NCBI RefSeq assembly: GCF_001577755.1
Contig: NZ_CP010776.1
Location: forward strand, 62,001 to 126,000
Source: Rufibacter sp. DG15C
Lineage (GTDB): Bacteria > Bacteroidota > Bacteroidia > Cytophagales > Hymenobacteraceae
Reading direction: 5' to 3'
DNA length: 64,000 nucleotides
Positions within the stretch are counted from its first letter, which is position 1. Each line of letters opens with the position of its first letter. The translations under genes were made by a program, and so were the position numbers. Below are positions 3,339-42,604 of this stretch, one piece after another. Under the pieces are notes generated by a model. The model worked only from the letters and a program-made list of their open reading frames with translations, was not told where the DNA came from and searched no databases.

Positions 3339-3378
3339 GCGTTTTTGACCTATTTTCCTTAAAAGAAGCCAAAAACGA
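3339..3378. repeat. Dispersed palindrome, degenerate copy
   Basis: Left arm GCGTTTTTGACCTATTTTCC is followed by a right arm AGAAGCCAAAAACG. This is an imperfect copy of the family core CGTTTTTGGCCTG...CAGGCCAAAAACG. It lies between two minus-strand genes. Confidence 0.7.
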
Positions 3379-3392
3379 AAACCTTGAAAACA

Positions 3393-3427
3393 AAGAAGCC
3401 CACCTGCTGTTACGCGGTGGGCTTCTT
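3393..3427. terminator. Hairpin terminator after permease gene
   Basis: Twelve-base arms AAGAAGCCCACC / GGTGGGCTTCTT pair across an 11-base loop and are flanked by T-rich sequence on the minus strand. The hairpin starts about 20 bp after the stop of the minus-strand permease gene, where an intrinsic terminator is expected. Confidence 0.75.
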
Positions 3428-3446
3428 TTTACTATTTCAGAAAGCG

Positions 3447-5000
3447 TTATTCCAGGTTGTTTTCCTTACGGATGACGCTGTGTTTCTTACCGTAGAAGAA
3501 GTAAATGGCAATACCAATGGCCATCCAGCCTAACAGTCGGTACCAGGTCTCAATTGGCAAACCGGCCATCATACCCAAACATACCAGAATACCCAAGATT
3601 GGCACCAACGGCACCAAAGGCGTTCTGAACGGACGTGGACGGTCTGGCTCTTTTACGCGCAGGTACCAAACACCGGCACACACAATCACAAAGGCTAGCA
3701 ACGTACCAATAGATACCAAGTGACCTAGTTCTGTTACAGAGAAAGCACCTGCTACAATGGCGCAGATAGTACCCGTTAAGATAGTACTCACGTGAGGCGT
3801 CTTGAAACGTGGGTGCAATCTACCAAAGATTGGAGGCAGCAAACCGTCTTTAGACATGGTGTAGAAGATACGCGGCTGTGACATCAACATCACCAGCATT
3901 ACAGAAGAAAGACCGGCAATGGCACCAATCTTAATCAAGTCACGCAAGAATCTGTAACCAGTTTTCTCAATACCCACGGCAATAGGCTCAGCTACGTTCA
4001 GCTGGCTGTAGTGTACCATGGCGGTCAAGATACCAGATACTAGAATGTACAGGATGGTACAGATCACCAAAGAACCCAAGATACCAATTGGCATGTCTCT
4101 TTGTGGATTTTTAGCTTCCTGGGCAGTAGTAGAAACGGCGTCAAAGCCAATGTAGGCGAAGAAGATAACTCCCGCGGCGCGTACAATACCAGACCAGCCA
4201 TACTCCCCAAAACCACCTTTGTTTTCTGGGATGAACGGCGTCCAGTTAGCGGCAGCCTCGTCTGGGTGACCAAATAACCAGTTAGCACCGGCCATGATGA
4301 ACAAGATCACCACGCCTACTTTAATGATTACAGCTACGTTGTTAAACTTGGCAGACTCGCTCATACCAATCACCAACAGGATGGTTACCAAGGCAATGGC
4401 AATGGCCGCCACTAGGTTAAAGATACCTGTAGCTTGTGGCAAGGTGGCAATGTTAATGCCCTCGGCGGCTAAGGAAGAAGTTAACTGCTCAGTGATAGGC
4501 GTCCAGGCACCGGTTTTGGCAACGTATACCATCTCAATACCAATGGCATTTGACCATTCCGGCGGAATGTTCACGCCAAAGTCACGCAAGAAGGATACCA
4601 CGTATCCAGACCAACCAACGGCCACGGTAGCGGCACCAAATAAGTACTCAAGAATCAAATCCCAGCCAATGATCCAAGCCACAAACTCACCCAGCGTAGC
4701 ATAACCGTAGGTGTAGGCAGATCCGGCAATAGGAATCATGGAAGCAAATTCTGCGTAGCAAAGACCGGCAAACGCACAGCCCAAGCCTGCCAAAATAAAG
4801 GCTAATACAATAGCAGGGCCGGTGTATTCAGCGGCCGCGCTTCCGGTAAGTACAAAAATACCCGTCCCAATGATGGCCCCTACGCCAAGAGCCACCAAGT
4901 TCACTGGCCCTAAGGTGCGTTTTAGACTGTGGGCGCCCTCACTAAAGGCGTCTGCGCTAAGCTTGTCAATTGACTTCCTAGCGAAAAGTTGGTTTGCCAT
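3447..5000 (-). CDS. APC-family amino acid permease
   Basis: A 517-residue inner-membrane protein with about 12 hydrophobic segments. The glycine-rich motif of TM1 (GVGAIIGTGIFVLTG, residues 39-53) is the hallmark of the amino acid-polyamine-organocation superfamily. The length and the AEYTGPAIVLAF and YAEFASMIPIAGSAYTY segments fit the cationic amino acid transporter (CAT/YfnA-like) branch. Expected role: proton-coupled amino acid uptake. The gene stands alone, with a hairpin terminator after the stop and a palindrome-containing divergent gap toward sbcD. Substrate specificity is not determinable here. Confidence 0.88.
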   Translation of the reverse strand: MANQLFARKSIDKLSADAFSEGAHSLKRTLGPVNLVALGVGAIIGTGIFVLTGSAAAEYTGPAIVLAFILAGLGCAFAGLCYAEFASMIPIAGSAYTYGYATLGEFVAWIIGWDLILEYLFGAATVAVGWSGYVVSFLRDFGVNIPPEWSNAIGIEMVYVAKTGAWTPITEQLTSSLAAEGINIATLPQATGIFNLVAAIAIALVTILLVIGMSESAKFNNVAVIIKVGVVILFIMAGANWLFGHPDEAAANWTPFIPENKGGFGEYGWSGIVRAAGVIFFAYIGFDAVSTTAQEAKNPQRDMPIGILGSLVICTILYILVSGILTAMVHYSQLNVAEPIAVGIEKTGYRFLRDLIKIGAIAGLSSVMLVMLMSQPRIFYTMSKDGLLPPIFGRLHPRFKTPHVSTILTGTICAIVAGAFSVTELGHLVSIGTLLAFVIVCAGVWYLRVKEPDRPRPFRTPLVPLVPILGILVCLGMMAGLPIETWYRLLGWMAIGIAIYFFYGKKHSVIRKENNLE

Positions 5001-5131
5001 AAAAGCTTAAAAATTAAAGAAGTGTTTAGTTTGGTTAGTTAATCAAGGGGATTGAAGAGGCTAATATAAGGACAATTTAATAGAACCAACGCAGATAGGT
5101 AGGTTTTTGGGAATTTGTATCCGTATTTTTC

Positions 5132-5175
5132 CCCGCGTTTTCTGCCTGGTTTCTGGAAAACAAGCCAAAAATGCA
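5132..5175. repeat. Dispersed palindrome, degenerate copy
   Basis: GCGTTTTCTGCCTGGTTTCTGG pairs loosely with AAAACAAGCCAAAAATGC. It sits in the divergent gap between the permease and sbcD, so it cannot be a simple transcription terminator for either gene. Confidence 0.65.
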
Positions 5176-5222
5176 AGCTCACTCCAAGGCCGATTGCCCA
5201 CTCATAATTCAGGAGGCTTTTG

Positions 5223-5230
5223 TATCTTCG
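5223..5230 (+). promoter_or_regulatory. Candidate -7 box for sbcD
   Basis: TATCTTCG is a one-mismatch match to the Bacteroidota -7 element TAnnTTTG and lies 35 bp before the sbcD start codon. No clear -33 TTTG was matched, so this is tentative. Confidence 0.3.
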
Positions 5231-5265
5231 GGCTCTTGCACACCACAGAGAAAGACAGCAGCGGC

Positions 5266-6531
5266 ATGATACGGGTACTACACACAGCAGACTGGCATTT
5301 GGGACAACGCTTGGCCAACCATGAGCGGTTAGAAGAGCATCGGGCGTTTTTGACCTGGCTCTGCCAAACCATCTGCGACCAGAAGATAGACCTGCTCCTC
5401 ATTGCCGGCGACATCTTTGACACCGGCTTTCCCAGTAACGCCGCGCTTAAGCTCTACTATGATTTTTTGCGTGAGATAAAAGACACCTGCTGCCGGGATC
5501 TGGTCATCATTGGCGGCAACCATGACTCGGTTTCTACTCTCAACGCCCCCGCCGAACTCCTGCGCCATTACAAGGTGCACGTGGTAGGCGGCGCGCCCGC
5601 CAACTGCCAGGACCAGGTGATTGTCTTGACAGATGATGACGACCAGCCCAAAGCCGTGGTGTGTGCCGTGCCGTTCCTGCGGGACAAAGACGTGCGCCTA
5701 TCGGTGCCCGGCGAGACATCTGAGGAGCGCGAAGCCCGCCTGAAGCAAGGCATCTGCGACCATTATAACCAGTTGGTTCCTTTGGTGCAGCATTTCAAGC
5801 AGCAAGGCATTCCGGTCTTGGCTACCGGCCACCTGTTTGCCGCCGGCGGAAGCGGCTCTGACAGCGAGAAGGAAATCCACGTGGGCAACTTAGGCCAGAT
5901 CTGCGGCGACCAGTTCCCTCAAGAATTTGACTATGTAGCGCTAGGCCATTTGCACCGGCCGCAAATTGTGAACAAGATGCCGCACATCCGGTACAGCGGT
6001 TCTCCCATTCCGTTGAGTTTCTCAGAGATCACGGACAAAAAGCAGGTGGTCATTTTGGAGTTTGAAGGCGCCGAGTTGTCCAGCATCAAAGAACTGCCCA
6101 TTCCCTGCTGGCGCCAACTGGTCCGGTTTAAAGGCACCATTGACGAAGTATTCCCTAAAATCCTGGCTTTTGACAACGGTGACACTGCCTTACCTGCCTG
6201 GGCCGAGGTGCAGTTGCAATACGAGCACAACCTGCATGACCATACCGCGCGCCTGCACGAGGCCTTCGCGCTGCAAGACCAGGTCCAGCTGCTCATGCAC
6301 CGCCCCTTGCGCACCATTGACAGCCAAAGCCTGGACCAACAAGTGGCGCCTGAGCAAGACCTGGCGGACCTGAAACCGAAAGACGTCTTCTTGAAGCGCT
6401 GCGAAGAAGCCATGGAGCAGGACACGTACCAAGACTTGGTTTCTGCCTTTGATGAACTGTTAGAATTAATGCCGCAGTCAGAAGATACGTTAGCGCCTGT
6501 TACTGCCGCCGCAGACAAAGCCCTGCTTTAA
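5266..6531 (+). CDS. sbcD: SbcD-like nuclease subunit of SbcCD
   Basis: The reading frame is open from 5107, but the family begins at the ATG at 5266 (MIRVLHTADWHLG); the earlier codons run through a dispersed palindrome and are very unlikely to be translated. The 421-residue product has the Mre11/SbcD metallophosphoesterase motifs in order: D9 and H11 (ADWHLG), D49 (AGDIFD), GGNHD (83-87), a GH pair in ATGHLF and GHLHRPQ. SbcCD trims hairpins and protein-blocked DNA ends using an ATPase partner, SbcC. Unusually, no sbcC follows: the next gene is a catalase beyond a 416 bp gap. The partner must be encoded elsewhere or be absent. Confidence 0.9.
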   Translation: MIRVLHTADWHLGQRLANHERLEEHRAFLTWLCQTICDQKIDLLLIAGDIFDTGFPSNAALKLYYDFLREIKDTCCRDLVIIGGNHDSVSTLNAPAELLRHYKVHVVGGAPANCQDQVIVLTDDDDQPKAVVCAVPFLRDKDVRLSVPGETSEEREARLKQGICDHYNQLVPLVQHFKQQGIPVLATGHLFAAGGSGSDSEKEIHVGNLGQICGDQFPQEFDYVALGHLHRPQIVNKMPHIRYSGSPIPLSFSEITDKKQVVILEFEGAELSSIKELPIPCWRQLVRFKGTIDEVFPKILAFDNGDTALPAWAEVQLQYEHNLHDHTARLHEAFALQDQVQLLMHRPLRTIDSQSLDQQVAPEQDLADLKPKDVFLKRCEEAMEQDTYQDLVSAFDELLELMPQSEDTLAPVTAAADKALL

Positions 6532-6556
6532 TTTTTAGTTCTCCTTATTTTTCTAA

Positions 6557-6600
6557 AGCCGTTTTTGGCATGTTTTCTAGAAAACATGCCAAAAACGGCT
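6557..6600. repeat. Dispersed palindrome, perfect 44-bp copy
   Basis: A perfect 22+22 bp palindrome with arm AGCCGTTTTTGGCATGTTTTCT and no loop. It is the cleanest member of the dispersed family in this window and follows sbcD by 25 bp. Confidence 0.9.
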
Positions 6601-6721
6601 TTCTGCTTTTAACCATCTGCTGTTTAAAAGAAGCGCAGCCCATTCCTCATTTCTGTAGTTTAACTGCCTCTAAACTGTCTAACCCCTAACCAATTTTATT
6701 TTATTGAAGGACAATTCTTTC

Positions 6722-6752
6722 ATATCATTATAGCCTAAAGCTATAATGATAT
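6722..6752. promoter_or_regulatory. OxyR-like operator upstream of catalase
   Basis: A perfect 13-bp inverted repeat (ATATCATTATAGC, five-base spacer CTAAA, GCTATAATGATAT) contains ATAG-N7-CTAT, the half-site pattern recognised by OxyR. It lies about 195 bp before the catalase start and just upstream of a candidate -33 box, a position that suits an activator of peroxide-inducible transcription. The protein that binds it is inferred, not shown. Confidence 0.5.
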
Positions 6753-6764
6753 CACAATTATCAA

Positions 6765-6796
6765 TTTGATATATAAACTAGAAGCGGACACCTTTA
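6765..6796 (+). promoter_or_regulatory. Candidate catalase promoter
   Basis: TTTG at 6765-6768 and CACCTTTA at 6789-6796 are 20 bases apart, approximating the Bacteroidota pattern TTTG-N19/21-TAnnTTTG with two mismatches in the second box. The remaining 150 bp to the start codon would be leader; nothing else was recognised in it. Confidence 0.3.
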
Positions 6797-8555: not shown

Positions 8556-8580
8556 TTAATGCGTTTTATAGAGTTTGAGA

Positions 8581-8609
8581 AAAGCCGCTCCTGCTGGGAG
8601 CGGCTTTTC
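8581..8609. terminator. Terminator after catalase
   Basis: Arms AAAAGCCGCTCC and GGAGCGGCTTTT (12 bp) with a five-base loop, followed by TCTGTTTTT. It lies 25 bp after the catalase stop and serves the convergent end with the next minus-strand gene. Confidence 0.85.
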
Positions 8610-8650
8610 TGTTTTTAGGCTGTTTTCCAGAAATCAGGTCAAAAATGGGT
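8609..8650. repeat. Dispersed palindrome, degenerate copy
   Basis: TGTTTTTAGGCTGTTTTCCAG followed by AAATCAGGTCAAAAATGG. It abuts the catalase terminator in a convergent gap. Confidence 0.75.
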
Positions 8651-8905: not shown

Positions 8906-8952
8906 GGTACTTAAAATCTGATCTACGCTTCTTGTATACGAAGTGCAGCCAT

Positions 8953-9549: not shown

Positions 9550-9551
9550 GC

Positions 9552-11006: not shown

Positions 11007-11052
11007 CAGCCGTTTCTGACCTATTCCTGAGAAAGTAGGCCAAAAACGGCTG
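11007..11052. repeat. Dispersed palindrome
   Basis: CAGCCGTTTCTGACCTATTC and GTAGGCCAAAAACGGCTG form long arms with a few mismatches. It begins 26 bp downstream of the glutathione peroxidase stop. Confidence 0.85.
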
Positions 11053-11716: not shown

Positions 11717-11755
11717 TGATTTCTGCCTATTTTCTGGAAAAGAGGCCAAAAAGGA
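11717..11755. repeat. Dispersed palindrome, degenerate copy
   Basis: TGATTTCTGCCTATTTTCTGG then AAAAGAGGCCAAAAAGG. It lies between the MarR stop and the glutathione peroxidase start. Confidence 0.7.
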
Positions 11756-12336: not shown

Positions 12337-12694
12337 ACAGGTAGAAAGTTGCAACAAAGAAACGGCTGCCACCCCAAAACTTCAAATTCTTGGAGCATAT
12401 TATTATTCACAGGCTAAATTAGACTTTGGCTTCAAACCAAAGTATTGGAGCAAACATGATGGCTGCCTAATTATGTCACTGGAAATGTGGAAGCCTGCGT
12501 TTCCAGGGCCAGCCAAGAAAGCTTAACAGGAGACGAGGTTATTTGTTTTCAGTCTGTTATCTGGAAAACAAGGCAAAAACGCCCGGGAGTTCAAAACTAG
12601 GTTAGCGGCTCATCACTTTCTGATTCCTATATAGGAAACACTCTGCCTGTACCCTCGTTTTTAAGGAGTAAACCTTCATTTTAAATGACAGCAC
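12337..12694. other. Divergent intergenic region
   Basis: This 358-bp gap separates the divergent MarR gene and the small lysine-rich protein gene. It holds one dispersed palindrome (12543-12583). Apart from promoter-like AT-rich stretches near 12390-12420, no other element was recognised. Confidence 0.5.
12543..12583. repeat. Dispersed palindrome, degenerate copy
   Basis: TTGTTTTCAGTCTGTTATCTGG followed by AAAACAAGGCAAAAACGC in a divergent gap. Confidence 0.7.
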
Positions 12695-14620: not shown

Positions 14621-14670
14621 AAGCGCCGTTTTCGGCCTGATATATAGAAATCAGGCCGAAAACGGCGCTT
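14621..14670. repeat. Dispersed palindrome with compensatory changes
   Basis: Arms AAGCGCCGTTTTCGGCCTGAT and ATCAGGCCGAAAACGGCGCTT pair perfectly over 21 bp. The core reads TTTTCGG instead of TTTTTGG, and the other arm carries the matching change, so pairing is conserved. It starts downstream of the copper ATPase stop. Confidence 0.9.
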
Positions 14671-17300: not shown

Positions 17301-17344
17301 GAGCGTTTTTGGCCTCATTTGGGGAAATCAGGTCAAAAACGCCC
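17301..17344. repeat. Dispersed palindrome
   Basis: GCGTTTTTGGCCTCATTT and AAATCAGGTCAAAAACGC in the 320-bp divergent gap between the P-type ATPase and the next plus-strand gene. Nothing else was recognised in that gap. Confidence 0.85.
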
Positions 17345-18290: not shown

Positions 18291-18348
18291 GCCCGTGGTT
18301 CATTTTTGGCTTGTTTTCTATAGAATAGGCCAAAAACGAACCACGGGC
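18291..18348. repeat. Dispersed palindrome, extended arms
   Basis: The family core (TTTTTGGCTTGTTTTC...GAATAGGCCAAAAACG) is extended by gene-specific complementary flanks GCCCGTGGTT / AACCACGGGC, giving a 58-bp hairpin between convergent genes where it could end transcription both ways. Confidence 0.9.
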
Positions 18349-20636: not shown

Positions 20637-23600
20637 ATGCTACTGACCAAACCTGTTTCCCAACATAAAACGATTCCTGGTAAGACTTCCCCTGAAATGC
20701 TCTTCGGGAGAAGGCAGTTTATCCCTTTGCTTCTGGGGATGGTAGTCATTGCGGTCGGATTTATCTGCATGGCATTGGACCCCACGCCGCAGGGCTATGG
20801 TTTGCTGGGCCTCACGCTGGGACCGCTATTGGTAGTTATCGGGTTGATGCTTCCGTTTTTCGGCATTTTCCGGAAAAACAGGCCAAAAACGGAGGGACAG
20901 ATTTTACCAAAGCAACCCGAGGAAGTACAGAATGCCTGGAAATCGTTTCACCGTTGGAACCTGCTGGTAGGTTGGTGCGTGGCGTTGATAGCCTTGACGG
21001 TTTATGTCTTGACCTTGGAGCCTAGCACCAGCTTTTGGGACACGGGTGAGTTTATTGCGGCGGCCTACAAATTGCAGGTACCACATCCGCCGGGGGCGCC
21101 GTTGTTTTTGTTGATTGGCCGGTTGTTTACGCTGTTGAGTTTTGGCAATGTCACCCAGGTGGCCTGGTGCATGAACCTGCTGTCTGCCCTGAGCAGTGCA
21201 GGCACGGTGCTGTTTCTGTTCTGGAGCATCACGCTGTTGGCCAAGCGTCTACTTTCCATTTCTCCAGAAGGACCCACCAGGTCCCAGCAAGTTCTGCTAC
21301 TAGCCAGTGCCACCGTGGGCGCCTTGGGATTTGCGTTCACGGACTCGTTCTGGTTTTCTGCCGTTGAGGCCGAAGTCTACGCCCTCTCCTCCTTCTTCAC
21401 GGCCATCGTCTTCTGGGCCGCCCTCATGTGGCAAGCCAAATCTCATACCCCGCAGGCCGACCGTTGGCTTCTGTTCTTGGCGTATCTGGTAGGCTTGTCC
21501 ATTGGCGTCCACTTGCTCAATCTGGTGGCAATTCCGGCCATTGCCTTGCTGGTCTACCTGCAACGCAACAAACCTACCAAGCGCGGAATTTTGCTTTCCT
21601 TGGTCATCGGTGGAGCCATTGTGCTGGTAGTGATGGAAGGTGTCATTACGGGCTTGCCTACGCTAGCCGGTACCTTTGAGGTCTTCTTTGTCAACAGTTT
21701 GAGTTTGCCGTATGGCAGTGGAGCCGTGTTGTTTCTATTGTTGCTTGCCGGGGCGCTGGTGTACGGACTGCGCTGGGCCAAGCAACATGGCAAAGCGGTT
21801 CTGCATACGTCTTTAGTGGCCTTTATCTTGATTTTGACGGGCTATTCCTCTTACTTGATGGTGCCTATCCGGTCTGGATATAACACGCCCATTGACGAGA
21901 ACAATCCAGAGAACCTACTCAGCTTTGTGAGCTACCTCAAACGCGAGCAGTATGGATCCCGGCCGTTGGTATACGGACCGCAGTTCAATGCCCAAAGCCA
22001 GAGCTATGACAAGACGGGCGTTGTCTATGCGCCCCAAAACGGCAAATATGAAGTAGTAGACACTAAGTTTGAAACTACCTATCTGGCCCAGGACAAAGTT
22101 CTCTTACCACGGCTGTATTCTCCAGAACCTTCGCATCTGCGGGCGTACCAGCAATGGGTGAACGTAGAGGCAGGCCAGAAACCTAGCTTCGGGCAAAATT
22201 TAGCATTTCTCTGGAACTACCAGTTGGGTCACATGTATTGGCGGTACTTCGGGTGGAATTTTGTGGGCCGCGAGCATGATACCCAACACGCCGGCGTGCT
22301 GTGGCCTTGGGAACGAAACCAAGACGTACCCGCTCCGCTTTCGGCCAGCAAGGCCAGAAACCAATTCTATCTGTTGCCCTTGCTCCTAGGCGTTTTTGGC
22401 CTGTTTTTCCAGTTTAAGCGCAAAACCGGGGATGCCTGGACGGTGCTCCTGCTTTTCTTCTTTACAGGCGTGGCCATTGTGCTGTACCTGAACCAACCTC
22501 CCGTAGAGCCACGGGAACGGGACTATACTTTCGCGGGCTCATACTACGCGTTCAGCATCTGGATGGGATTGGGGGTTCTGGCCATCGCCGAAGGCTTAAG
22601 AAAAGTCTTAAAATCAGACATCATAATTGCAGTTTCGGCTACTATTTTGGCGCTGTCGGTACCGGTTATTTTGCTAGCCGAAGGCTGGGACGACCATGAC
22701 CGTTCAGGCCGTTCGCATGCTATGGATAATGCCCGTAACCTGTTAAGTTCTGTAGCGCCCAACGCCATCCTGTTCACCAACGGCGACAATGACACCTTCC
22801 CGCTGTGGTACGCACAAGAAGTGGAAGGCTTTAGGACCGATGTGCGCGTGCTGGTCCTCCCCTACCTCAACACTGACTGGTACATTGAGCAGTTGAAGAA
22901 GCAGATGAACGCGTCTAAGCCGTTGGAAACCACCTTGGAGATGCCGCAATACGCGTTTAGCAACAACAACTATTTACCCTTTGTGGCCAACCCCACCGTG
23001 CAAGAAAGTGGCATGGACTTACGACAGTTTTTGACCCTCCTGCAACAGAACCACCCCGCGTTGCAGGTGCAGGCGCAGGACGGCAGAACGCTAAACACCT
23101 TACCTACCAAGAAACTGCAGTTAGCGGTAGATGCTCAGGCAATCTTGCAGAACCAAACCGTTTCATCTGCGCGCGCCAATCAGGTAGCCCCTGTCATGCA
23201 ATGGGAGTTGCAAACCGAGGCGCTTGAGAAAAAGCATTTGGTCATTTTGGATATTCTGGCTACCAATAACTGGAAGCGGCCCATCTACTTCTCCACATCG
23301 GGCGGCGAAACCTCAGAATTGGGTTTGCAGCCGTTTCTGCAACTAGAAGGCATGGCCTTGCGCGTGGTGCCTGCCCGCAATCCTAATCCGCAGGCCGAAG
23401 CGTATGTTGACAAAGACAGAACTTCTCAAAGCCTTATGCATACGTTTACGTTTACCGGCCTGCAAAACCCAGACAACGTGTATGAGGATAACTTCACCAC
23501 GCAGGTAGTGCCCATTTACCGAAAGAATTTCGCGGAGCTGGCCACGGCTTATCTACAGAACAATGAGCCATTAAAAGCGCGCGCCGTTCTAAAGAAATGC

Positions 23601-23897
23601 CTCACCGCCTTACCAGACCATGGTGCCCCGCACAACTTTGAAAGTGCCTCACTGGTCTTGCCTTTGGCGCAGGCGGGTATGGAGAGAGAATCTGTAAAAT
23701 TGACCCAATTGCTTAGCCGCCGGTTTGACCAGTTGCTTACGTATTACAATACGCAACCGCTATATTATGACCGCGAACGCCAGCTTAACTTGTACGGCCT
23801 TCAGTTGCTGACCCAAGCTGCTTACAGCGCTAAAATGCCGCAGGCCAAGCAACTAGAAGCGCTGTTCAACAAGCATTATCTCTTGCTTAAGAAGTAG
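20637..23897 (+). CDS. DUF2723 (GT117) membrane glycosyltransferase
   Basis: A 1086-residue multi-pass protein of the DUF2723 family, implicated in protein O-glycosylation in Bacteroidota. Hallmarks are WDTGEFIAAAYKLQVPHPPGAPL (about 132-154, catalytic-type acidic motif), EPRERDYTFAGSYYAF and NGDNDTFPLWYAQEVEG; the C-terminal 200 residues are soluble. An N-terminal extension (22-84) with two membrane helices resembles the small DUF3098 protein and is followed by a basic linker. Two dispersed palindromes lie inside this gene, at codons ~72-86 and ~585-598, and are translated in frame. It stands alone and ends before a palindrome. Confidence 0.9.
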   Translation: MLLTKPVSQHKTIPGKTSPEMLFGRRQFIPLLLGMVVIAVGFICMALDPTPQGYGLLGLTLGPLLVVIGLMLPFFGIFRKNRPKTEGQILPKQPEEVQNAWKSFHRWNLLVGWCVALIALTVYVLTLEPSTSFWDTGEFIAAAYKLQVPHPPGAPLFLLIGRLFTLLSFGNVTQVAWCMNLLSALSSAGTVLFLFWSITLLAKRLLSISPEGPTRSQQVLLLASATVGALGFAFTDSFWFSAVEAEVYALSSFFTAIVFWAALMWQAKSHTPQADRWLLFLAYLVGLSIGVHLLNLVAIPAIALLVYLQRNKPTKRGILLSLVIGGAIVLVVMEGVITGLPTLAGTFEVFFVNSLSLPYGSGAVLFLLLLAGALVYGLRWAKQHGKAVLHTSLVAFILILTGYSSYLMVPIRSGYNTPIDENNPENLLSFVSYLKREQYGSRPLVYGPQFNAQSQSYDKTGVVYAPQNGKYEVVDTKFETTYLAQDKVLLPRLYSPEPSHLRAYQQWVNVEAGQKPSFGQNLAFLWNYQLGHMYWRYFGWNFVGREHDTQHAGVLWPWERNQDVPAPLSASKARNQFYLLPLLLGVFGLFFQFKRKTGDAWTVLLLFFFTGVAIVLYLNQPPVEPRERDYTFAGSYYAFSIWMGLGVLAIAEGLRKVLKSDIIIAVSATILALSVPVILLAEGWDDHDRSGRSHAMDNARNLLSSVAPNAILFTNGDNDTFPLWYAQEVEGFRTDVRVLVLPYLNTDWYIEQLKKQMNASKPLETTLEMPQYAFSNNNYLPFVANPTVQESGMDLRQFLTLLQQNHPALQVQAQDGRTLNTLPTKKLQLAVDAQAILQNQTVSSARANQVAPVMQWELQTEALEKKHLVILDILATNNWKRPIYFSTSGGETSELGLQPFLQLEGMALRVVPARNPNPQAEAYVDKDRTSQSLMHTFTFTGLQNPDNVYEDNFTTQVVPIYRKNFAELATAYLQNNEPLKARAVLKKCLTALPDHGAPHNFESASLVLPLAQAGMERESVKLTQLLSRRFDQLLTYYNTQPLYYDRERQLNLYGLQLLTQAAYSAKMPQAKQLEALFNKHYLLLKK
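20850..20894. repeat. Dispersed palindrome inside coding sequence
   Basis: TTCCGTTTTTCGGCATTTTC and GGAAAAACAGGCCAAAAACGG form a clear family copy in frame within the DUF2723 gene. It encodes LPFFGIFRKNRPKTEG at the junction between the N-terminal two-helix segment and the main domain. Confidence 0.85.
22390..22428. repeat. Degenerate palindrome inside coding sequence
   Basis: GCGTTTTTGGCCTGTTTTTCC is a strong left arm; the right arm (TTTAAGCGCAAAACCG) is decayed. It encodes GVFGLFFQFKRKTG at a membrane-helix end of the DUF2723 protein. Confidence 0.6.
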
Positions 23898-23921
23898 TAT
23901 TGGCAACTAATTGGCAAAACA

Positions 23922-23955
23922 TTTTAGGCCTGTTTTCTGGAAAACAGGCCTAAAA
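23922..23955. repeat. Dispersed palindrome, perfect arms
   Basis: Perfect 16-bp arms TTTTAGGCCTGTTTTC / GAAAACAGGCCTAAAA with a two-base centre, 24 bp after the DUF2723 stop in a convergent gap. The T-to-A core change is matched on both arms. Confidence 0.92.
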
Positions 23956-24051
23956 CAAGGTATAGCATTTGGTTAGTGCCTAGCTTGCCCACAAGATTCT
24001 TTCAGGAGGACAAAGGTGGGAAGGACAGTTAGAATGGGGAATCCATAACTC

Positions 24052-24788: not shown

Positions 24789-24830
24789 GCCGTTTTTGGC
24801 TCATTTCTGAGAAATTAAGCCAAAAACGGT
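24789..24830. repeat. Dispersed palindrome
   Basis: CCGTTTTTGGCTCATTTC and GAAATTAAGCCAAAAACGG, 18 bp downstream of the helicase stop. Confidence 0.88.
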
Positions 24831-26233: not shown

Positions 26234-26271
26234 TGCGTTTTTGGGCTGTTTTGGGAAAAGAGGCTTAAAGT
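26234..26271. repeat. Dispersed palindrome, degenerate copy
   Basis: TGCGTTTTTGGGCTGTTTTGGG followed by AAAAGAGGCTTAAAG in the gap upstream of the helicase. It is the last native repeat before the AT-rich cassette insert. Confidence 0.65.
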
Positions 26272-26427
26272 ATAGCAGGCTTCTACTAGGTGAACTTTGT
26301 AGTTCTTCTGGTTATGTATCTCCGTTTATCTAGCCAACAGTAGGCAGAAAAACGGAAGTTTATTCCATATATTGGGTTGCTAAACAGAATAACTTCGGTT
26401 AGCTTCTAGTTGGGCAAAATTTATAAA

Positions 26428-28623: not shown

Positions 28624-28667
28624 TTCCGTTTTCGGGCTGTTTTCCAGAAAACACCCCGAAAACGGAA
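28624..28667. repeat. Dispersed palindrome with compensatory changes
   Basis: TTCCGTTTTCGGGCTGTTTTC and GAAAACACCCCGAAAACGGAA; core T-to-C changes are matched on the other arm. It marks the return to native chromosome after the cassettes. Confidence 0.9.
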
Positions 28668-30897: not shown

Positions 30898-30936
30898 CAT
30901 TTTTGGCCTAATATCCAGAAAACAGGCCAAAAACAG
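30898..30936. repeat. Dispersed palindrome
   Basis: CATTTTTGGCCTAATATCCAG and AAAACAGGCCAAAAACAG between two plus-strand genes, upstream of the PAS kinase. Confidence 0.85.
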
Positions 30937-32314: not shown

Positions 32315-32354
32315 TCAGTTTTGGTCAATTTTCAGGAAAACAAGCTAAAAACGG
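32315..32354. repeat. Dispersed palindrome, degenerate copy
   Basis: CAGTTTTGGTCAATTTTCAGG and AAAACAAGCTAAAAACGG. Its right end abuts the -33 box of the next gene's promoter candidate. Confidence 0.75.
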
Positions 32355-33763: not shown

Positions 33764-33789
33764 TTCTCAACTCAGCACACAATTCAACG

Positions 33790-33833
33790 AATCGTTTTTG
33801 GCCTGTTTCCTGGAAAGCACACCAAAAACGATT
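33790..33833. repeat. Dispersed palindrome
   Basis: AATCGTTTTTGGCCTGTTTCC and AAAGCACACCAAAAACGATT, followed by a run of T; placed 26 bp after the sulfurtransferase stop, where it could act as a terminator. Confidence 0.9.
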
Positions 33834-34059
33834 TTTTTTATTTAAGGCTGAGGTAAATGGAAGCCAACCAGTTTTCATTAAATGGTACGGCGCCCATAGC
33901 GACCTCCTTTCCTGCCTACATTTTAAACCTAAAGTACCTGCACTCATACCCAACGGTTGGTAATGTGAATAATTAAAAGTTCAAGGCAGATAGTATGCAG
34001 GATTACTTCTACATTCGCAGGAAATAATACCATATAAGCATTGATTCTGAAGTTACCTT

Positions 34060-35644: not shown

Positions 35645-35688
35645 TATCGTTTTTGGCTTAATTTCCAGAAAACAGCCTAAAAACGATA
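35645..35688. repeat. Dispersed palindrome
   Basis: TATCGTTTTTGGCTTAATTTC and AAACAGCCTAAAAACGATA, 13 bp after the GT39 stop. Confidence 0.9.
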
Positions 35689-35711: not shown

Positions 35712-35741
35712 AGAAAAGGCCAGCAAATGCTGGCCTTTTCT
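35712..35741. terminator. Convergent terminator
   Basis: Perfect 14-bp arms AGAAAAGGCCAGCA / TGCTGGCCTTTTCT around AA, between the GT39 gene and the DUF4890-like gene. Confidence 0.85.
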
Positions 35742-37837: not shown

Positions 37838-38153
37838 TGCTTTCTCTCAGATTACACTACAAAAGTACCTTAGCTAACCTCCTGAAAACATGACATTGGT
37901 CATTTGTATAGCTGGAATGCCTCAGTTTTAAACGAAAGCGGGCAGGCCGTTTTTGGATTGTTTCCTGAGAAATAGGCCAAAAAAGGAGGATGCAGTTAGG
38001 CAGATTTGCGTTGGGGTTGGGCTATTGGGCTTGTAAGTGATAACACCAACAAGGGCGGCGAGGAAAGTACCAATTAGCTTTTTAAATGAAAAAGACACAA
38101 AATGCAAAATCAAGTCTTACATCTTGTGTCCTATGTCTTGTGTCTGGCAAACT
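37838..38153. other. Intergenic region upstream of hemA
   Basis: Contains the dispersed palindrome at 37945-37987 and a 9-bp direct repeat TCTTGTGTC (38122-38130 and 38136-38144). No gene was supported. Confidence 0.5.
37945..37987. repeat. Dispersed palindrome
   Basis: GGCCGTTTTTGGATTGTTTCC and GAAATAGGCCAAAAAAGG, upstream of hemA. Confidence 0.82.
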
Positions 38154-39215
38154 CTAATTCCGCATGCGGCTTAACTTCTCCAGGTTGAGGAGGATGATTT
38201 TACTACCGCGGGTATCAATTAGTTTTTCGTCTTTGAAGTCTGCCAGAGTACGGATGACGGTTTCTTTAGAGGCGCCCACAATGCTGGCTAAGTCTTCTCT
38301 AGAGATGATGATTTCGGTTTTGCCTTCTACTTCCTGTTGGTACTGTTTCTCTACTAGGAGTAAGGCCTCTGCCACGCGTTTGCGCACCGAATTGTAAGCC
38401 AGTTTTAAGAGACGGTCTTCGCGGTCGGCCAGGTTATCAGAGAGGATTTTGATAAACTTGTTGGCCACATCGCGGTTCTGGTGCAGCAAGGCAAAGAAGT
38501 CTTCCTTGGGAATCACGTACACTTCAGAATCCTCCAGCGCCATGGCAGACTCGCGGTAGGTGCTGTCTTCCAGCAAATCCAGGTAGCCTATAAAATCGCC
38601 GTCTTTGTAGAGGTTGGTGATGTACTCGCGGCCTTCCTCGTTGGACTTGTAGCCTTTCACCTTGCCTTTGTTCAGGAAGAACAATGAGTTAGGGTAACTG
38701 CCTTCCAGAAACAGGTTGTTCTTCTTTTTAAAGAGCGTGACGCGGCGCTTGTCTGAGATGAGGTTGTTAAGCTCCTCAAAGCCTTTGGCCTCTTCTACAA
38801 ACTGCTCCAGGCCTTGGGCGGTCTTCTGGAAATCTGTGCGCAGGATTTCGCTTTTCTTGAGGCGCATCTCTACGGCATCCAGCAGTTCCAGGTCGTCAAA
38901 GGGTTTGGTGAGGTAATCATCAGCTCCCAGGTTCATGCCTTTCCTGAAGTCCTCTTTCTCAGACTTGGCCGTCAAGAAGACAAAGGGAATGCTGGACGTT
39001 TCTGGGTTCTTGCTCAGCATGTGCAGCACGCCGTAACCGTCTAGTTGCGGCATCATGATGTCACAGATGATCAAGTCTGGCTTTTCCTGACGGGCCAGCT
39101 CTACGCCTATTTTTCCGTTTTCCGCCTCAAACACCTGGTAGTTGGCCAGAGAGAGAATCTCGGCGGTGTTTTCTCTAATTTCCTGGTTGTCTTCTATGAG
39201 CAGTATCTTTTTCAT
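38154..39215 (-). CDS. Receiver-CRP fusion transcription regulator
   Basis: A 353-residue regulator joining a CheY-like receiver (1-125; D52 in ICDIMMP, T82, K104) to a cyclic-nucleotide-binding-type beta-roll (about 145-260, LFFLNKGKVKGY...DGDFIGYLDLL) and a CRP-type winged helix (about 285-345, ISREDLASIVGASKETVIRTLADF). Phosphorylation would therefore control a CRP-like DNA-binding module directly. Its start codon lies within a dispersed palindrome, and it is the last gene of the four-gene signalling operon, two bases after the kinase stop. Confidence 0.9.
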   Translation of the reverse strand: MKKILLIEDNQEIRENTAEILSLANYQVFEAENGKIGVELARQEKPDLIICDIMMPQLDGYGVLHMLSKNPETSSIPFVFLTAKSEKEDFRKGMNLGADDYLTKPFDDLELLDAVEMRLKKSEILRTDFQKTAQGLEQFVEEAKGFEELNNLISDKRRVTLFKKKNNLFLEGSYPNSLFFLNKGKVKGYKSNEEGREYITNLYKDGDFIGYLDLLEDSTYRESAMALEDSEVYVIPKEDFFALLHQNRDVANKFIKILSDNLADREDRLLKLAYNSVRKRVAEALLLVEKQYQQEVEGKTEIIISREDLASIVGASKETVIRTLADFKDEKLIDTRGSKIILLNLEKLSRMRN

Positions 39216-39251
39216 TTTTAGGCTGATTTGGGGAAAATAAGCGAAAAACGG
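39213..39251. repeat. Dispersed palindrome forming a gene junction
   Basis: On the minus strand, CGTTTTTCGCTTATTTTCC and AAATCAGCCTAAAAATG. The repeat encodes the last residues of the receiver-kinase (RFSLIFPKSA), its stop codon, and the start codon of the receiver-CRP gene. Confidence 0.75.
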
Positions 39252-40444
39252 GAGCCTTGGTTCAGTTCACTTTCATAATCCATGGTACCGTCCATTACCT
39301 CTACGTAGCGCTTAACAATGTTCAGACCCAGGCCGGTGCCTTGTATGTTGGTAGCATTCTGCGCCCTAAAAAACGGCGTAAACAAATGCACCTGATCGGC
39401 TTTGGGTATGCCAATGCCCTTGTCCTCAACCGTAATGGTCACTTGGGAGCCAGTCACGTCTGTAGTGAACAAAATGGGCTTGCCCTCGCCAGAATATTTA
39501 CTTCCGTTGGAAAGCAAATTGAGCAGAATGTTCTTAAGCAATTGCTTGTCTAGGTGCACCACCGTTTGGTCACCGGTATGCTGATATTGTATCTGCTGGC
39601 CTGGCTTCAAAAGCCCTTGCATGTCTTCTACGGCCTCCTGTGAGAATTCTACCAAGTCAAAGGTGCTAGGCAGGTTATGAACTTTGCCTTCCTCAATGCG
39701 GCTCATGGAAAGGAAATCGTTGAGGATGGTGGTGAGGTTCTGCACGGCAGACTTGATGCGGTCTACGTGCTTCTGGCGCTTGTCATCATCCTCCGTGTTC
39801 TTGTATTTGCCGATCAAGGACGCGGAAGACAACACCGTACTCAAAGGCGTCCTGAACTCATGCGAAGCCGTGGTCACAAACCTGGACTTCAACTCATTCA
39901 GCTCCTTTTCCTTTTGCAGGGCCTTCTGGATGTCTGCCTGGGCCTCATGCAGGATGCGGTTGGTGTTCTCCAGTTTTTGGATGGCTTCTGCTAATTCCTG
40001 CGTACGTGCCTCTACCCTTTCTTCTAGCTCTGAGTTGAGTTTCTGGATTTCCTCCAAGTTCTTGGCATGCTCCAGGCTGTACCTAATGGACCGTTCCAGA
40101 TCAAAGGGATTGAAGGTGCCTTTCACCAGGTAATCTGAGGCGCCCGCCCGCATGGCCTTCTCATCTGTCTCGCGGTCTGTCTGGCCGGTGAGCAAAATAA
40201 ACGGCGCGGTGCAGCCTTCCTCTACGGCTTTGGTGATGAGTTCCAGACCGTCATGCGCGCCCAGAAAGAAATCCACCAGGTACACGTCATACTTGTTCTC
40301 CTTAACCAGCGCCAGCGCTTCTTGGAAAGAACCGGTCCAGTCCAAGGTGTAATGCCTACCCGGAATGTCTTCTATGATGTCTCGGGTAATGATGTAGTCA
40401 TCTTCATCATCATCTACCAACAGGATTCTGGTTTTGTCTTGCAT
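39218..40444 (-). CDS. Receiver-histidine kinase hybrid
   Basis: A 408-residue protein with an N-terminal receiver (1-125; D58 in YLVDFFLG), a long coiled coil (125-185), a dimerisation helix with TTASHEFRTPLS (H195) and a HATPase domain (DKGIGIP and GTGLGLNIVKRYVE). Receiver-first kinases relay signals between other two-component proteins. It is the third gene of the operon; its stop codon is two bases from the start of the receiver-CRP gene, indicating coupled translation. Confidence 0.92.
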   Translation of the reverse strand: MQDKTRILLVDDDEDDYIITRDIIEDIPGRHYTLDWTGSFQEALALVKENKYDVYLVDFFLGAHDGLELITKAVEEGCTAPFILLTGQTDRETDEKAMRAGASDYLVKGTFNPFDLERSIRYSLEHAKNLEEIQKLNSELEERVEARTQELAEAIQKLENTNRILHEAQADIQKALQKEKELNELKSRFVTTASHEFRTPLSTVLSSASLIGKYKNTEDDDKRQKHVDRIKSAVQNLTTILNDFLSMSRIEEGKVHNLPSTFDLVEFSQEAVEDMQGLLKPGQQIQYQHTGDQTVVHLDKQLLKNILLNLLSNGSKYSGEGKPILFTTDVTGSQVTITVEDKGIGIPKADQVHLFTPFFRAQNATNIQGTGLGLNIVKRYVEVMDGTMDYESELNQGSRFSLIFPKSA

Positions 40445-40459
40445 GCAGAAAACGGCTGG

Positions 40460-40909
40460 TTAGGCTTTGGGCAGTTCTACAATCTGGAACCAGTATTTGC
40501 TCAAGGTCTGCATGACGTCTACCAGACCGGCAAAGGTTACCGGCTTGGTAATAAAAGAACTTACGCCCAGGTCATAGGTACGCAGCACGTCTTCCTCGGC
40601 TTTGGAGGTTGTCAAGACCACCACGGGTATCACGCGCAGATGCTCATCAGACTTAATTTCCTTAAGCGCCTCGCGGCCGTCTTTTTTAGGCATGTTCAAA
40701 TCCAGCAAGATGAGGCCCGGCGTGGGGTACTCATTCTTATCTGAGAACCTGCCTTGGTTATGCAGATAATCCATTAATTCTTCGCCGTTCTCTACAAACT
40801 GGATGTTGTTCATGAGGCGGCTTTCATCCAACGCTTCTTTGACCAGCATGCGGTCTTCGGCGTCGTCCTCAGCAATAAGAATTACTATGGGTCTTTTACT
40901 ATGTGACAT
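40460..40909 (-). CDS. Single-domain response regulator (Rcp1-like)
   Basis: A 149-residue receiver alone: AEDDAEDR acidic cluster, D70 in LLDLNMPKKDG, T100 and K121. The family is that of Rcp1-type regulators that commonly serve PAS or phytochrome kinases. With no output domain it likely passes phosphate between the upstream FixL-like kinase and the downstream receiver-kinase. It lies 11 bp after the FixL-like kinase gene. Confidence 0.93.
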   Translation of the reverse strand: MSHSKRPIVILIAEDDAEDRMLVKEALDESRLMNNIQFVENGEELMDYLHNQGRFSDKNEYPTPGLILLDLNMPKKDGREALKEIKSDEHLRVIPVVVLTTSKAEEDVLRTYDLGVSSFITKPVTFAGLVDVMQTLSKYWFQIVELPKA

Positions 40910-40920
40910 AACGTGCGGGT

Positions 40921-42465
40921 TTATTCCTGTAAGTGTTTCTTGGCCAGCGTAATGATAAACTGGGTGCCTTTGCCCGGCTGGCTTCTGGCCGTGATGTCGC
41001 CGCCGTGCCGAATGGCTATTTTACGGCAAATGGCCAGCCCAACGCCTGAGCCTTCGTACTTATGGCCTTCCAGGCGCTGAAAGATATTAAAAATCCGGTC
41101 AAGGTACTTTTCTTCAAAGCCAATGCCATTGTCCTCTACTACAATCTCTACCACCTCGTCGCCGGGCGTAGAGGTTAAATGCGCAGTACGTTGCAGGCTA
41201 GAAGAAGAGATCCTGATGATGGGCTTCTCATTGTCCTTCCTGAACTTGATGGCGTTGCTAATGAGGTTCTGAAAGAGCTGGCGCATCTGGGTAGGCTCTG
41301 CTTCAATCACCGGCAAGGGGAAACGCTCAATCTGGGCATCGGTTTTTTCAATGGTGATTTCCAAGTCAGAGAGTACCTCAGAAAGAATGGCATCCAAGCT
41401 TACTTTCTCAAAACCCTTGGATTTGGTGGTGACCCTAGAAAAGGTAAGCAAGTCATTGATGAGGTTCTGCATGCGCACTGCGGCATTGAGCATGCGGTCC
41501 ACATAGTCCTGCCCCTGCTCACTCAGATTGCCTTTCTCTTTGGACTTGAGCCTGTCCCCAAACGCTTGAATCTTGCGCAGCGGCTCCTGCAAGTCATGTG
41601 AAGACACGTAGGCAAAATCCTGCAGCTCGCGGTTACTACGCTCCAGTTCTGCGGCGTAGCGGCGTAATCTTTCTTCGCTTATCTTTTGCTGGGTGATGTC
41701 ATGGATAAAGCCTGTGTACACCTTGCGGTCGGCTAGTTGCACCTCACTGATGCTCAGAAACAGCGGGAAAACGGTGCCGTCTTTTTTTAAGCCCGAAACC
41801 TCGCGGCCAATGCCAATGATTTTGCGTTTGCCGGTTCTATGGTAATTCTCCATGTAGCCGTCGTGGGCGCTATGGTCGGGCTCGGGCATGAGCATGCTGA
41901 TGTTGCAGCCCAACAGTTCCTCTTCCTGGTAGCCAAACAGCCGCGCCGCCGCGGGGTTCACCATCTCAATGATGCCGTGCATGTCTATGGTGAGGATGCC
42001 GTCTACCGCTACTTGTATAATGGAGTTGATCTTGTTTTCACTCTCCAAGCGAGCGTCTTCGGCCTTTTTCTGCTGGGAGATGTCATGGATTATACCCGTG
42101 AAGATGATTCTGTCCTGTAGTTTCACCTCACTGATGCTCAGCAGAAACGGAAACACGGTGCCGTCCTTCTTGAGGCCTTTGACCTCCCTACCTATGCCAA
42201 TGATTTTGCGTTGCCCCGTGCGCTTGTAATTTTCAATGTACTGGTCATGCGCACTGTGGTCGGGCTCGGGCATGAGCATGCTGATGTTGTTGCCAATCAT
42301 CTCCTCGGGCTGGTACCCGAAGATGGTAGACACCGCCGGATTCACGGATTCTATGCGGCCCCGGGTGTTTATGGTGATGATACCGTCAATGGCGGCGTCA
42401 ATGATGGCCTGCAACCGAGCTTGGTCATCTGGGTTATGAGAGGGAGTCAAATGCGTTTCTTCCAA
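40921..42465 (-). CDS. Double FixL-like PAS histidine kinase
   Basis: A 514-residue kinase with two nearly identical PAS domains (about 12-135 and 140-262). Each repeats the FixL haem-PAS pattern: MPEPDHSAHDxY with a histidine at the FixL ligand position (H73, H201), then KIIGIGREVxGLKKDGTVFP with the FixL-type arginine (R93, R221). A phosphoacceptor helix (VSSHDLQEPL, H290) and a HATPase domain follow. FixL uses haem to sense oxygen; whether these PAS domains hold haem is untested. It heads a four-gene operon. Confidence 0.88.
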   Translation of the reverse strand: MEETHLTPSHNPDDQARLQAIIDAAIDGIITINTRGRIESVNPAVSTIFGYQPEEMIGNNISMLMPEPDHSAHDQYIENYKRTGQRKIIGIGREVKGLKKDGTVFPFLLSISEVKLQDRIIFTGIIHDISQQKKAEDARLESENKINSIIQVAVDGILTIDMHGIIEMVNPAAARLFGYQEEELLGCNISMLMPEPDHSAHDGYMENYHRTGKRKIIGIGREVSGLKKDGTVFPLFLSISEVQLADRKVYTGFIHDITQQKISEERLRRYAAELERSNRELQDFAYVSSHDLQEPLRKIQAFGDRLKSKEKGNLSEQGQDYVDRMLNAAVRMQNLINDLLTFSRVTTKSKGFEKVSLDAILSEVLSDLEITIEKTDAQIERFPLPVIEAEPTQMRQLFQNLISNAIKFRKDNEKPIIRISSSSLQRTAHLTSTPGDEVVEIVVEDNGIGFEEKYLDRIFNIFQRLEGHKYEGSGVGLAICRKIAIRHGGDITARSQPGKGTQFIITLAKKHLQE

Positions 42466-42563
42466 GGCAATGAATTTCTATAAAAGTAGAAACATTCAGG
42501 TAAGGTGCCAATACCAATTCACCATAGCCAACTGGTAATGGCTATACGGATTTTGACAAGGAA

Positions 42564-42604
42564 GGCTTTTTTGGCCTGTTTTCTGGAAAAGAGGCCAAAA
42601 ACGA
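42564..42604. repeat. Dispersed palindrome
   Basis: GGCTTTTTTGGCCTGTTTTC and GAAAAGAGGCCAAAAACG, between the FixL-like kinase start and the membrane-protein gene; last family copy before the AT-rich island. Confidence 0.88.

What the first reader, a model, noticed from the sequence alone, without database searches (positions are those of the whole stretch)
3339..42604. A dispersed intergenic palindrome family, one copy in nearly every native gap
I count 23 copies of a 35-58 bp palindrome (core CGTTTTTGGCCTG...CAGGCCAAAAACG) between 3.3 and 42.6 kb, about one per 1.7 kb. It lies in convergent, divergent and tandem gaps alike, so it is not simply a terminator. Several copies keep pairing through matched changes in both arms (14621, 23922, 28624), and some arms are lengthened by gene-specific complementary flanks (18291). 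This argues for selection on structure, as with REP-type or nucleoid-associated elements. No REP-associated transposase (RAYT) gene is visible here.
Basis: partly seen in the sequence, partly recalled or inferred. Interest (0 to 1): 0.88.

Follow-up and report, generated by a model that had tools for sequence, protein, structure and literature searches.

The report
Rufibacter's dispersed 40-base palindromic DNA tag
A bacterial genus carries an almost symmetric 40-base DNA signature, by estimate well over a thousand times per genome and mostly between genes; it looks like a landmark read on double-stranded DNA by a still unknown protein, and its purpose is open.

Summary
In detail: 23 copies of a dyad-symmetric 38-40 bp motif lie at 3340-42603. 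The genome is Rufibacter-type. I found 339 copies in 866 kb read, about 1,600 per genome by extrapolation, with few weak ones. All 16 genus genomes held carry it; 84 other-genus genomes have 0-6 matches each.

The main inference fails. Over 325 copies the arms vary almost independently: no hairpin selection. No Y1 (RAYT-type) transposase was found. Of 158 copies, 152 are at or in the orthologous place in a relative, with no clean empty site; in MutL, CrtI, an NtrC-type regulator and partly MurF-Alr they align without indels. Species have consensus 'dialects' in shared gaps.

This fits a double-stranded site read by a symmetric protein and arisen in place, like DNA-uptake signals (USS/DUS). A minority at gene 3' ends is terminator-like. 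Protein and role are unknown: no pilus/T2SS ATPase passed the cut-off in 14 genus genomes, so uptake is unproven; chromosome organisation is an equal rival.

The parts
3340..3377 (.). dyad copy, tandem gap
   Evidence: 31/36 matches; gap classes from predicted genes
5136..5173 (.). dyad copy, divergent gap
   Evidence: 31/36
6560..6597 (.). dyad copy, tandem gap, arms fully complementary out to 6555-6602
   Evidence: 34/36
8610..8647 (.). dyad copy, convergent gap, abutting another inverted repeat 8578-8610
   Evidence: 30/36
11011..11048 (.). dyad copy, tandem gap
   Evidence: 28/36
11717..11754 (.). dyad copy, tandem gap
   Evidence: 29/36
12544..12581 (.). dyad copy, divergent gap
   Evidence: 29/36
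14627..14664 (.). dyad copy, tandem gap, matched change at position 7 in both arms
   Evidence: 30/36
17304..17341 (.). dyad copy, divergent gap
   Evidence: 31/36
18301..18338 (.). dyad copy, convergent gap, stem lengthened to 18291-18348 by gene-specific flanks (terminator-like)
   Evidence: 31/36
20854..20891 (.). dyad copy inside predicted gene 20769-23897 (near its N-terminus; true start uncertain)
   Evidence: 30/36
22391..22428 (.). dyad copy inside gene 20769-23897 (TMEM260-like), degenerate right arm
   Evidence: 26/36
23920..23957 (.). dyad copy, convergent gap
   Evidence: 32/36
24791..24828 (.). dyad copy, tandem gap
   Evidence: 28/36
26236..26273 (.). weakest dyad copy, divergent gap by predicted genes
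   Evidence: 23/36
28627..28664 (.). dyad copy, tandem gap
   Evidence: 31/36
30898..30935 (.). dyad copy, tandem gap
   Evidence: 31/36
32316..32353 (.). dyad copy, tandem gap
   Evidence: 29/36
33793..33830 (.). dyad copy, tandem gap, with partial outer complementarity 33771-33852
   Evidence: 32/36
35648..35685 (.). dyad copy, convergent gap, beside another inverted repeat 35712-35741
   Evidence: 31/36
37948..37985 (.). dyad copy, tandem gap
   Evidence: 29/36
39213..39250 (.). dyad copy across a gene junction: encodes the C-terminus of 39218-40444(-) and touches the start codon of 38154-39215(-)
   Evidence: 28/36
42566..42603 (.). dyad copy, last one before the low-GC stretch
   Evidence: 34/36

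Best explanation
The copies are one genome-wide double-stranded recognition sequence of about 40 bp, with two equal half-sites around a central dinucleotide, read by an unidentified symmetric (dimeric or tetrameric) DNA-binding protein of Rufibacter. SHOWN: 339 copies in 866 kb (about 1,600 per genome by extrapolation); full dyads far outnumber lone half-sites, yet the halves vary almost independently; the most constrained bases are in the T/A-tracts (positions 4-6 and 15-16 and their mirrors); copies keep their places over about 20% DNA divergence; several in-gene copies align without indels to relatives that lack the motif, so they arose by point substitution; species use different consensus 'dialects' while gap occupancy is largely shared; in-gene copies lie farther from other copies than random in-gene positions; a minority at gene 3' ends is built into terminator-like stems. 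INFERRED: that a protein reads the site, that its changing preference shapes the dialects, and that the site spreads because better-matching DNA is favoured (molecular drive), as with uptake signals. My best single guess for the job is a self-DNA tag of the USS/DUS type (about 0.35), level with chromosome-organising or topological sites (about 0.35).
For: Independent halves: (half-score correlation -0.003; lone half-sites only slightly above control). Position-specific constraint: (positions 4-6 changed in 0-1% of 123 orthologous copies, positions 13, 14, 19, 20 in 30-38%). Positional conservation: 123 of 158 at the exact orthologous place, 29 in the orthologous interval, 6 absent, those six in loosely aligned intervals; G017 gaps: both 110, own only 2, relative only 7, neither 158. 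In-place origin: MutL gap-free in 6 of 6 other-genus orthologs (17-21/36 there, 26 in own) and MurF-Alr gap-free in 3 of 6 (13-14/36 there, 30 in own); CrtI gap-free over the element in the two full-length PDB homologs shown, the NtrC-type regulator in the two shown. Dialects: (position 7 is T in own and G017, G/A in G012, C/T in G048 and G060; position 13 is C in 91% of G048 half-sites). Excess information, 46-47 bits. Spacing: (in-gene nearest neighbour 1,316 against 723 bp, p = 1.5e-4). Hardly any copies in low-GC stretches. In-place origin, clade types, long-term stability and terminator co-option are described for USS/DUS (passages and sections read: PMC1626085, PMC3630211).
Against: No T2SS/type-IV-pilus ATPase (PF00437) over the cut-off in any of 14 genus genomes, whereas known USS/DUS uptake uses pili (recalled); ComEC and DprA are present, but ComEC was also found in all 6 other-genus genomes searched, so it does not discriminate. 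No report of competence in Rufibacter appeared in the listings. USS/DUS are short and not palindromic, and 65% of H. influenzae USS are in genes; here 34 of 339 are. The excess right after stop codons (16 per kb at 0-10 nt, 6 at 11-40, 0.3-1.6 beyond 100) is more than mere permissiveness predicts. Overall the element is only modestly better conserved against G017 (0.85) than coding (0.82) or other aligned intergenic sequence (0.79); the contrast comes from single positions and from the poorly conserved adjoining bases. Position 7 does covary between arms (z 6.2), and double changes slightly exceed independence (92 against 76). Some in-gene cases do not support or cannot test in-place origin: 3 of 6 MurF-Alr orthologs and the FTHF cyclo-ligase homologs have gaps at the element, and the ComEC copies are not informative. 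No binding protein was found.
Confidence: 0.35

Rival explanations
1. Chromosome-architecture sites: a nucleoid or topology protein binds the dyad at the ends of transcription units about every 2.5 kb, bending the DNA or holding off supercoils, and selection keeps one site per unit.
For: Symmetric site with T/A-tracts about 10.5 bp apart in each half (my reading of the table) and a pyrimidine-purine centre in 240 of 345 own copies; even density along the chromosome (6-12 per 20 kb in 18 of 20 stretches, 5 and 1 in the other two); 52 of 65 convergent gaps of 45-200 bp occupied; in-gene copies lie in stretches far from other copies.
Against: Far more information than about 1,600 sites need (46-47 bits, against about 12, my arithmetic); dialect shifts across the genus; the pyrimidine-purine centre is not kept in G012 (55 of 159); the genus has one strong HU/IHF-family match per genome as other genera do, with weak second matches in 3 of 14, so no genus-wide extra family member. 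Spacing between occupied gaps is not more regular than the null (CV 1.09 against 0.84).
Confidence: 0.35
2. Transcription-end elements: bidirectional terminators, RNA hairpins or protein roadblocks after stop codons.
For: 73 of 326 copy-to-stop distances are 1-9 nt (convergent copies count for both stops); at 3' ends the stem is lengthened by 4 or more gene-specific complementary bases in 17 of 76 convergent, 13 of 82 near-stop tandem and 10 of 92 far tandem copies against about 1 expected each, and 24 of 82 near-stop tandem copies are followed by a T-run against 5 by an A-run; at 61 of 264 element-bearing 3' ends the best terminator call overlaps the element.
Against: Arms hardly covary; 41 copies in divergent gaps and 34 in genes, with stem extension near chance (2 of 41 against 0.5, 0 of 34 against 0.2); at another 61 of 264 element-bearing ends the best terminator call lies apart from the element and at 142 there is none.
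Confidence: 0.12
3. REP- or MITE-like mobile repeats spread by a transposase.
For: Many similar copies with 46-47 bits; few decayed ones; mostly in permissive 3' gaps; a few isolated copies in other genera, one of them near a DDE transposase gene and an integron-like repeat.
Against: No Y1/RAYT transposase in the genome (other transposase classes were not searched genome-wide); 152 of 158 copies at or in the orthologous place and no clean empty site; in-gene copies aligning without indels; shared dialects at old positions.
Confidence: 0.03

Closest known systems
USS of Pasteurellaceae (Haemophilus influenzae and relatives)
   Same: About a thousand or more copies per genome, strong consensus, arisen in place (not insertions), stable over long times, AT-rich flanks, two clade-specific types (passages and section 7 of PMC1626085; passages of PMC7811141)
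   Different: USS core is 9-10 bp, not palindromic, 65% in genes, with uptake preference shown by experiment; here a 40-bp dyad, 34 of 339 in genes, no pilus ATPase found and no uptake data
DUS of Neisseriaceae and its dialects
   Same: Dialects; inverted pairs associated with terminators (passages of PMC3630211)
   Different: DUS is a short single oriented word (recalled); here lone half-sites are only slightly above control and the dyad spacing is fixed
REP/BIME elements with RAYT
   Same: Short palindromic intergenic repeats, many copies, 3'-end bias (recalled)
   Different: No Y1 transposase, almost no arm covariation, not inserted where it could be tested
Sites of IHF/HU-type bending proteins
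   Same: Roughly 35-40 bp, A-tracts, flexible centre (recalled analogy)
   Different: Perfectly symmetric consensus, 46-47 bits, no genus-wide extra family member

Membership tests
REP/RAYT elements | Cognate Y1 (RAYT) transposase in the genome | tested here: not met
   PF01797: 0 matches in own genome; control rings in 5 of 14 known genomes
REP/RAYT elements | Copies arise by insertion | tested here: not met
   no clean empty site among 158 copies; in-gene copies without indels (a few cases)
REP/RAYT elements | Conserved stem-loop (covarying arms) | tested here: not met
   arms nearly independent; position 7 and the outer flanks are exceptions
USS/DUS uptake signals | Very many copies of a strong consensus, specific to a clade | tested here: met
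USS/DUS uptake signals | Arisen by point substitution in pre-existing sequence | tested here: met
   MutL 6 of 6 and MurF-Alr 3 of 6 orthologs gap-free; CrtI, NtrC-type. Not informative: ComEC; FTHF cyclo-ligase has small gaps at the element. Six of 34 in-gene genes or copies examined in alignments.
USS/DUS uptake signals | Clade dialects at shared positions | tested here: met
   well sampled only for own, G017 and G012
USS/DUS uptake signals | Pilus-type uptake machinery | tested here: not met
   PF00437 not over the cut-off in 14 of 14 genus genomes; other pilus parts not searched
USS/DUS uptake signals | Experimental preference in uptake | not testable with these tools
   Needs a competence assay
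Intrinsic terminators | GC stem followed by T-run, at transcript ends only | tested here: not met
   Met by a minority; copies also in divergent gaps and genes
Nucleoid-protein sites (HU/IHF) | Cognate protein bound to the sites | not testable with these tools
   Only the number of PF00216 matches was checked
Rfam RNA families | Match to a curated family | tested here: not met
   0 matches at gathering score in the window

The most novel reading that the evidence does not exclude
Rufibacter has evolved, independently of Pasteurellaceae and Neisseriaceae, a self-DNA tag system: a 40-bp palindromic signal read as a dyad by a symmetric receptor without type IV pili, accumulated in place by molecular drive, with species dialects that would bias genetic exchange.
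Probability: 0.3. Interest if true: 0.92.

Novelty: new variant of a known kind. Interest (0 to 1): 0.76.

Why it matters
Genome-wide sequence tags that accumulate in place and form dialects are, to my knowledge, established only for two proteobacterial families. A third case in Bacteroidota, with a long palindromic site and no pilus ATPase found, would separate what is general (molecular drive, dialects, terminator co-option) from what is particular to type IV pili. If instead the role is chromosome organisation, it would be a large, mapped set of sites with a built-in evolutionary experiment (dialects) for finding the protein. Either way the binding protein can be sought directly with one DNA duplex.

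Tried and rejected
Hairpin selection: not supported. RAYT mobility: not supported. HU/IHF paralog as the reader protein: PF00216 gives one strong match in each of the 14 genus genomes searched, with weak second matches in 3, as in other genera. Regular spacing: the CV between occupied gaps was larger, not smaller, than the null. A related palindrome in sister genus g2: the 13 best long palindromes in 120 kb show no common dyad and several look like ordinary terminators. Viral contigs: 0 exact matches to a 23-base pattern. Plasmid records: no match to one 82-base query, 33771-33852. Per-species PWM refinement on small samples over-fitted; I replaced it by a fixed mixture PWM with position 7 left flat. 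Isolated copies in other genera: I looked at 6 of the 12 other-genus genomes with matches; L197-L201, L203, L205 and L206 hold convincing copies (L204 and L208 are the same places as L197 and L203), L202 and L207 are weak. Around L199 the transposase part matches four genus genomes at 72-75% and an 88-base block with the palindrome matches several at up to 91%, which suggests exchange but was not pursued. ComEC copy 1 lies in an indel-rich region and ComEC copy 2 was not alignable: not counted as support. Gene calls are from my own hexamer-based finder (coding fraction 0.77); it misses some genes in the low-GC stretch and may misplace starts, so gap-class counts are approximate. In one search the random in-gene positions were limited to local GC above 0.45 while the in-gene copies were not, and the test was thought of after seeing the data. 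Papers: PMC3630211 passages; PMC7965970 passages and section 16; PMC1626085 passages and section 7; PMC7811141 passages; all others seen only in search listings. That I saw no report on this Rufibacter family rests on searches of this open-licence library only, and on their listed rows.


Full report
Observation. The window lies at 62001-126000 of a 4.14 Mb single-contig genome. The half-site occurs 78 times with up to 3 mismatches against 23.5 expected, and as a 38-base dyad 23 copies stand clear of background between 3340 and 42603. Scanning 864 kb of the own genome (464 kb contiguous but for a 2 kb gap filled with N, plus 20 evenly spaced 20-kb stretches) with a symmetric PWM gives 339 copies at 16 bits or more; 347 pass 4 bits and 318 pass 30 bits, while one Markov shuffle gives 3 at 4 bits. 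That extrapolates to about 1,600 copies. A 23-base pattern with up to 3 mismatches gives 827 forward and 835 reverse matches in the whole genome and none for the reversed control (one palindrome can count on both strands).

Distribution over organisms. An exact scan of the genome-contig collection with a 24-base pattern returned 39 stretches, all of them in Rufibacter records (records very near the own genome may be left out there). With a covariance model, all 16 genomes of the genus held reach 43-60 matches (60 candidates scored per genome), whereas 12 of 84 genomes of five other genera have 1-6 matches each. In 400 kb taken from those genera (part of it masked) nothing exceeds 3.4 bits with the own PWM. 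I looked closer at 6 of those 12 genomes: five hold one or more convincing isolated copies and one (G001) only a weak match.

Place in the genome. With my own gene finder (674 genes) the 339 copies fall as 174 tandem, 76 convergent, 41 divergent, 34 inside genes and 14 at stretch edges. Convergent gaps of 45-200 bp are occupied in 52 of 65 cases, tandem gaps of 100-400 bp in 115 of 205, divergent gaps of 200-400 bp in 23 of 49. In convergent gaps density is 16 per kb within 10 nt after a stop codon, 6 per kb at 11-40 nt and 0.3 beyond 100; with a start codon on the other side it is 6-16 per kb within 10 nt of the stop and falls off in the same way; within 40 nt of a start and no stop nearby it is 0.3 per kb. 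Density along the chromosome is even, except for 1 copy in a 20-kb low-GC stretch; the low-GC part of the window, 44-64 kb, has none. In-gene copies are farther from other copies than random in-gene positions (median 1,316 against 723 bp, p = 1.5e-4) and commoner in genes above 1.5 kb. This last test was thought of after seeing the data, and its random positions, unlike the copies, were limited to GC above 0.45.

Not a hairpin. For 325 copies, pairing of core positions 4-17 is what shuffled partners give except at position 7 (z 6.2); positions 1-3 and 18 are weakly positive (z 1.3-2.5), the central pair is below expectation (z -5.2), and the outer flanks 0 to -3 show excess complementarity (z 3.7-5.4). 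In tandem copies, G:U-type mismatches over positions 1-18 (189, my sum) do not exceed A:C-type ones (242). The two half-scores are uncorrelated (-0.003), and lone half-sites outside the elements are only slightly above control (33 against 14 at 12 bits, 4 against 1 at 20 bits). In 123 orthologous copies, 205 one-sided changes break and 242 make a pair, against 33 pair-to-pair double changes; 92 double changes of all kinds were seen against 76 expected, a slight excess.

Held in place. G017 (about 80% DNA identity) is collinear with about 413 kb of the own genome, of which 331 kb is in aligned blocks. Of 158 own copies in that span, 123 align with a copy, 29 have one in the orthologous interval and 6 have none; those 6 lie in loosely aligned intervals. 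Of the 20 in-gene copies, 19 align. Identity is 0.84 (intergenic) and 0.89 (in-gene) in the core against 0.67-0.77 in the 20 bases on either side, but 0.78-0.81 further out; over all aligned bases it is 0.85 in elements, 0.82 in coding and 0.79 in other intergenic sequence. The constraint is thus position by position: positions 4-6 change in 0-1%, 15 and 16 in 6-7%, and positions 13, 14, 19 and 20 in 30-38%.

Arisen in place. In MutL the element lies in the conserved segment PFYVLFLEIAPET and aligns without a gap in 6 of 6 orthologs of other genera, which match the consensus at 17-21 of 36 against 26 in the own genome; in MurF-Alr 3 of 6 orthologs are gap-free with 13-14 against 30, and the other three have gaps of 1, 2 and 12 residues. 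MutL is also gap-free over the element in the three PDB homologs shown, CrtI in the two full-length ones and the NtrC-type regulator in the two shown. The copy in FTHF cyclo-ligase lies where homologs have gaps of 2-4 residues, and the two ComEC copies are not informative. This is the kind of test used to show that USS are not insertions (PMC1626085 section 7). It was made on a handful of the 34 in-gene copies.

Dialects. In G012 (orthologs about 76% identical in protein) the consensus reads cGTTTTggGcCTGTTTTc with mostly G or A at position 7, where the own genome has T in 87% of half-sites. In 41 conserved gene pairs, 18 gaps are occupied in both genomes, 17 in neither, 2 in the own only, 4 in G012 only; of 30 half-sites in 15 single-copy pairs, 11 read T to G, 6 T to A and 5 stay T at position 7. 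Over the 14 relatives other than G017, G012 included, the tally is 31 both, 5 own only, 11 relative only, 47 neither. Samples of the 13 relatives besides G012 and G017 are small (2-24 copies), so their dialects are indicative only; G048 stands out with C at position 13 in 91% of half-sites.

Co-option as terminators. Outward gene-specific stem extension of 4 bp or more occurs in 17 of 76 convergent, 13 of 82 near-stop tandem and 10 of 92 far tandem copies (about 1 expected in each), but in 2 of 41 divergent (0.5 expected) and 0 of 34 in-gene copies; T-runs follow 24 of 82 near-stop tandem copies. At 61 of 264 element-bearing 3' ends the best terminator call overlaps the element, at 61 it lies apart, and at 142 there is none. 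DUS inverted pairs are described in a similar role.

What reads it. The site has T/A-tracts about 10.5 bp apart within each half (my reading) and a pyrimidine-purine centre in 240 of 345 own copies, though in only 55 of 159 G012 copies. Information is 46-47 bits, far above the roughly 12 bits that about 1,600 sites in 4 Mb would need (my arithmetic). No HU/IHF-family extra is shared by the genus. ComEC (with two in-gene copies) and DprA are present, but a pilus/T2SS ATPase was not found over the cut-off in 14 of 14 genus genomes. R. columbina, another member of Bacteroidota, was inhibited more by its own DNA than by foreign DNA in a transformation competition, and no signal has been established there. 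The role therefore stays open between a self-DNA tag and chromosome organisation.

Noticed in passing
L199 1455-1550 and 2165-2250 (genome of another genus): An isolated palindrome copy sits in what looks by eye like an integron cassette array (attC-like repeat, core letters recalled), near a DDE transposase gene; an 88-base block with the palindrome recurs in several genus genomes, at up to 91%.
   Followed up: partly
window 44000-64000: Low-GC stretch without any copy of the family; may be horizontally acquired.
   Followed up: no
window 45102-45151, 46834-46886, 62927-62975: Perfect 22-24 bp inverted repeats with a similar AAGAG(A)GG-type core in the low-GC stretch, unlike the main family.
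   Followed up: no
L010 1655-3568: The predicted ComEC gene (PF03772) carries two copies of the motif within its reading frame.
   Followed up: partly
G000 2.66 Mb stretch (L080): 20 kb with GC 0.355 and a single copy, perhaps another acquired island.
   Followed up: no
core position 7 and its mirror: The core pair with by far the clearest arm-to-arm covariation, and also the main dialect position; unexplained.
   Followed up: no
central dinucleotide of the dyad: Non-self-complementary TG/CA is commoner than TA/CG in own and G017 copies, and AG/CT is commonest in G012.
   Followed up: partly
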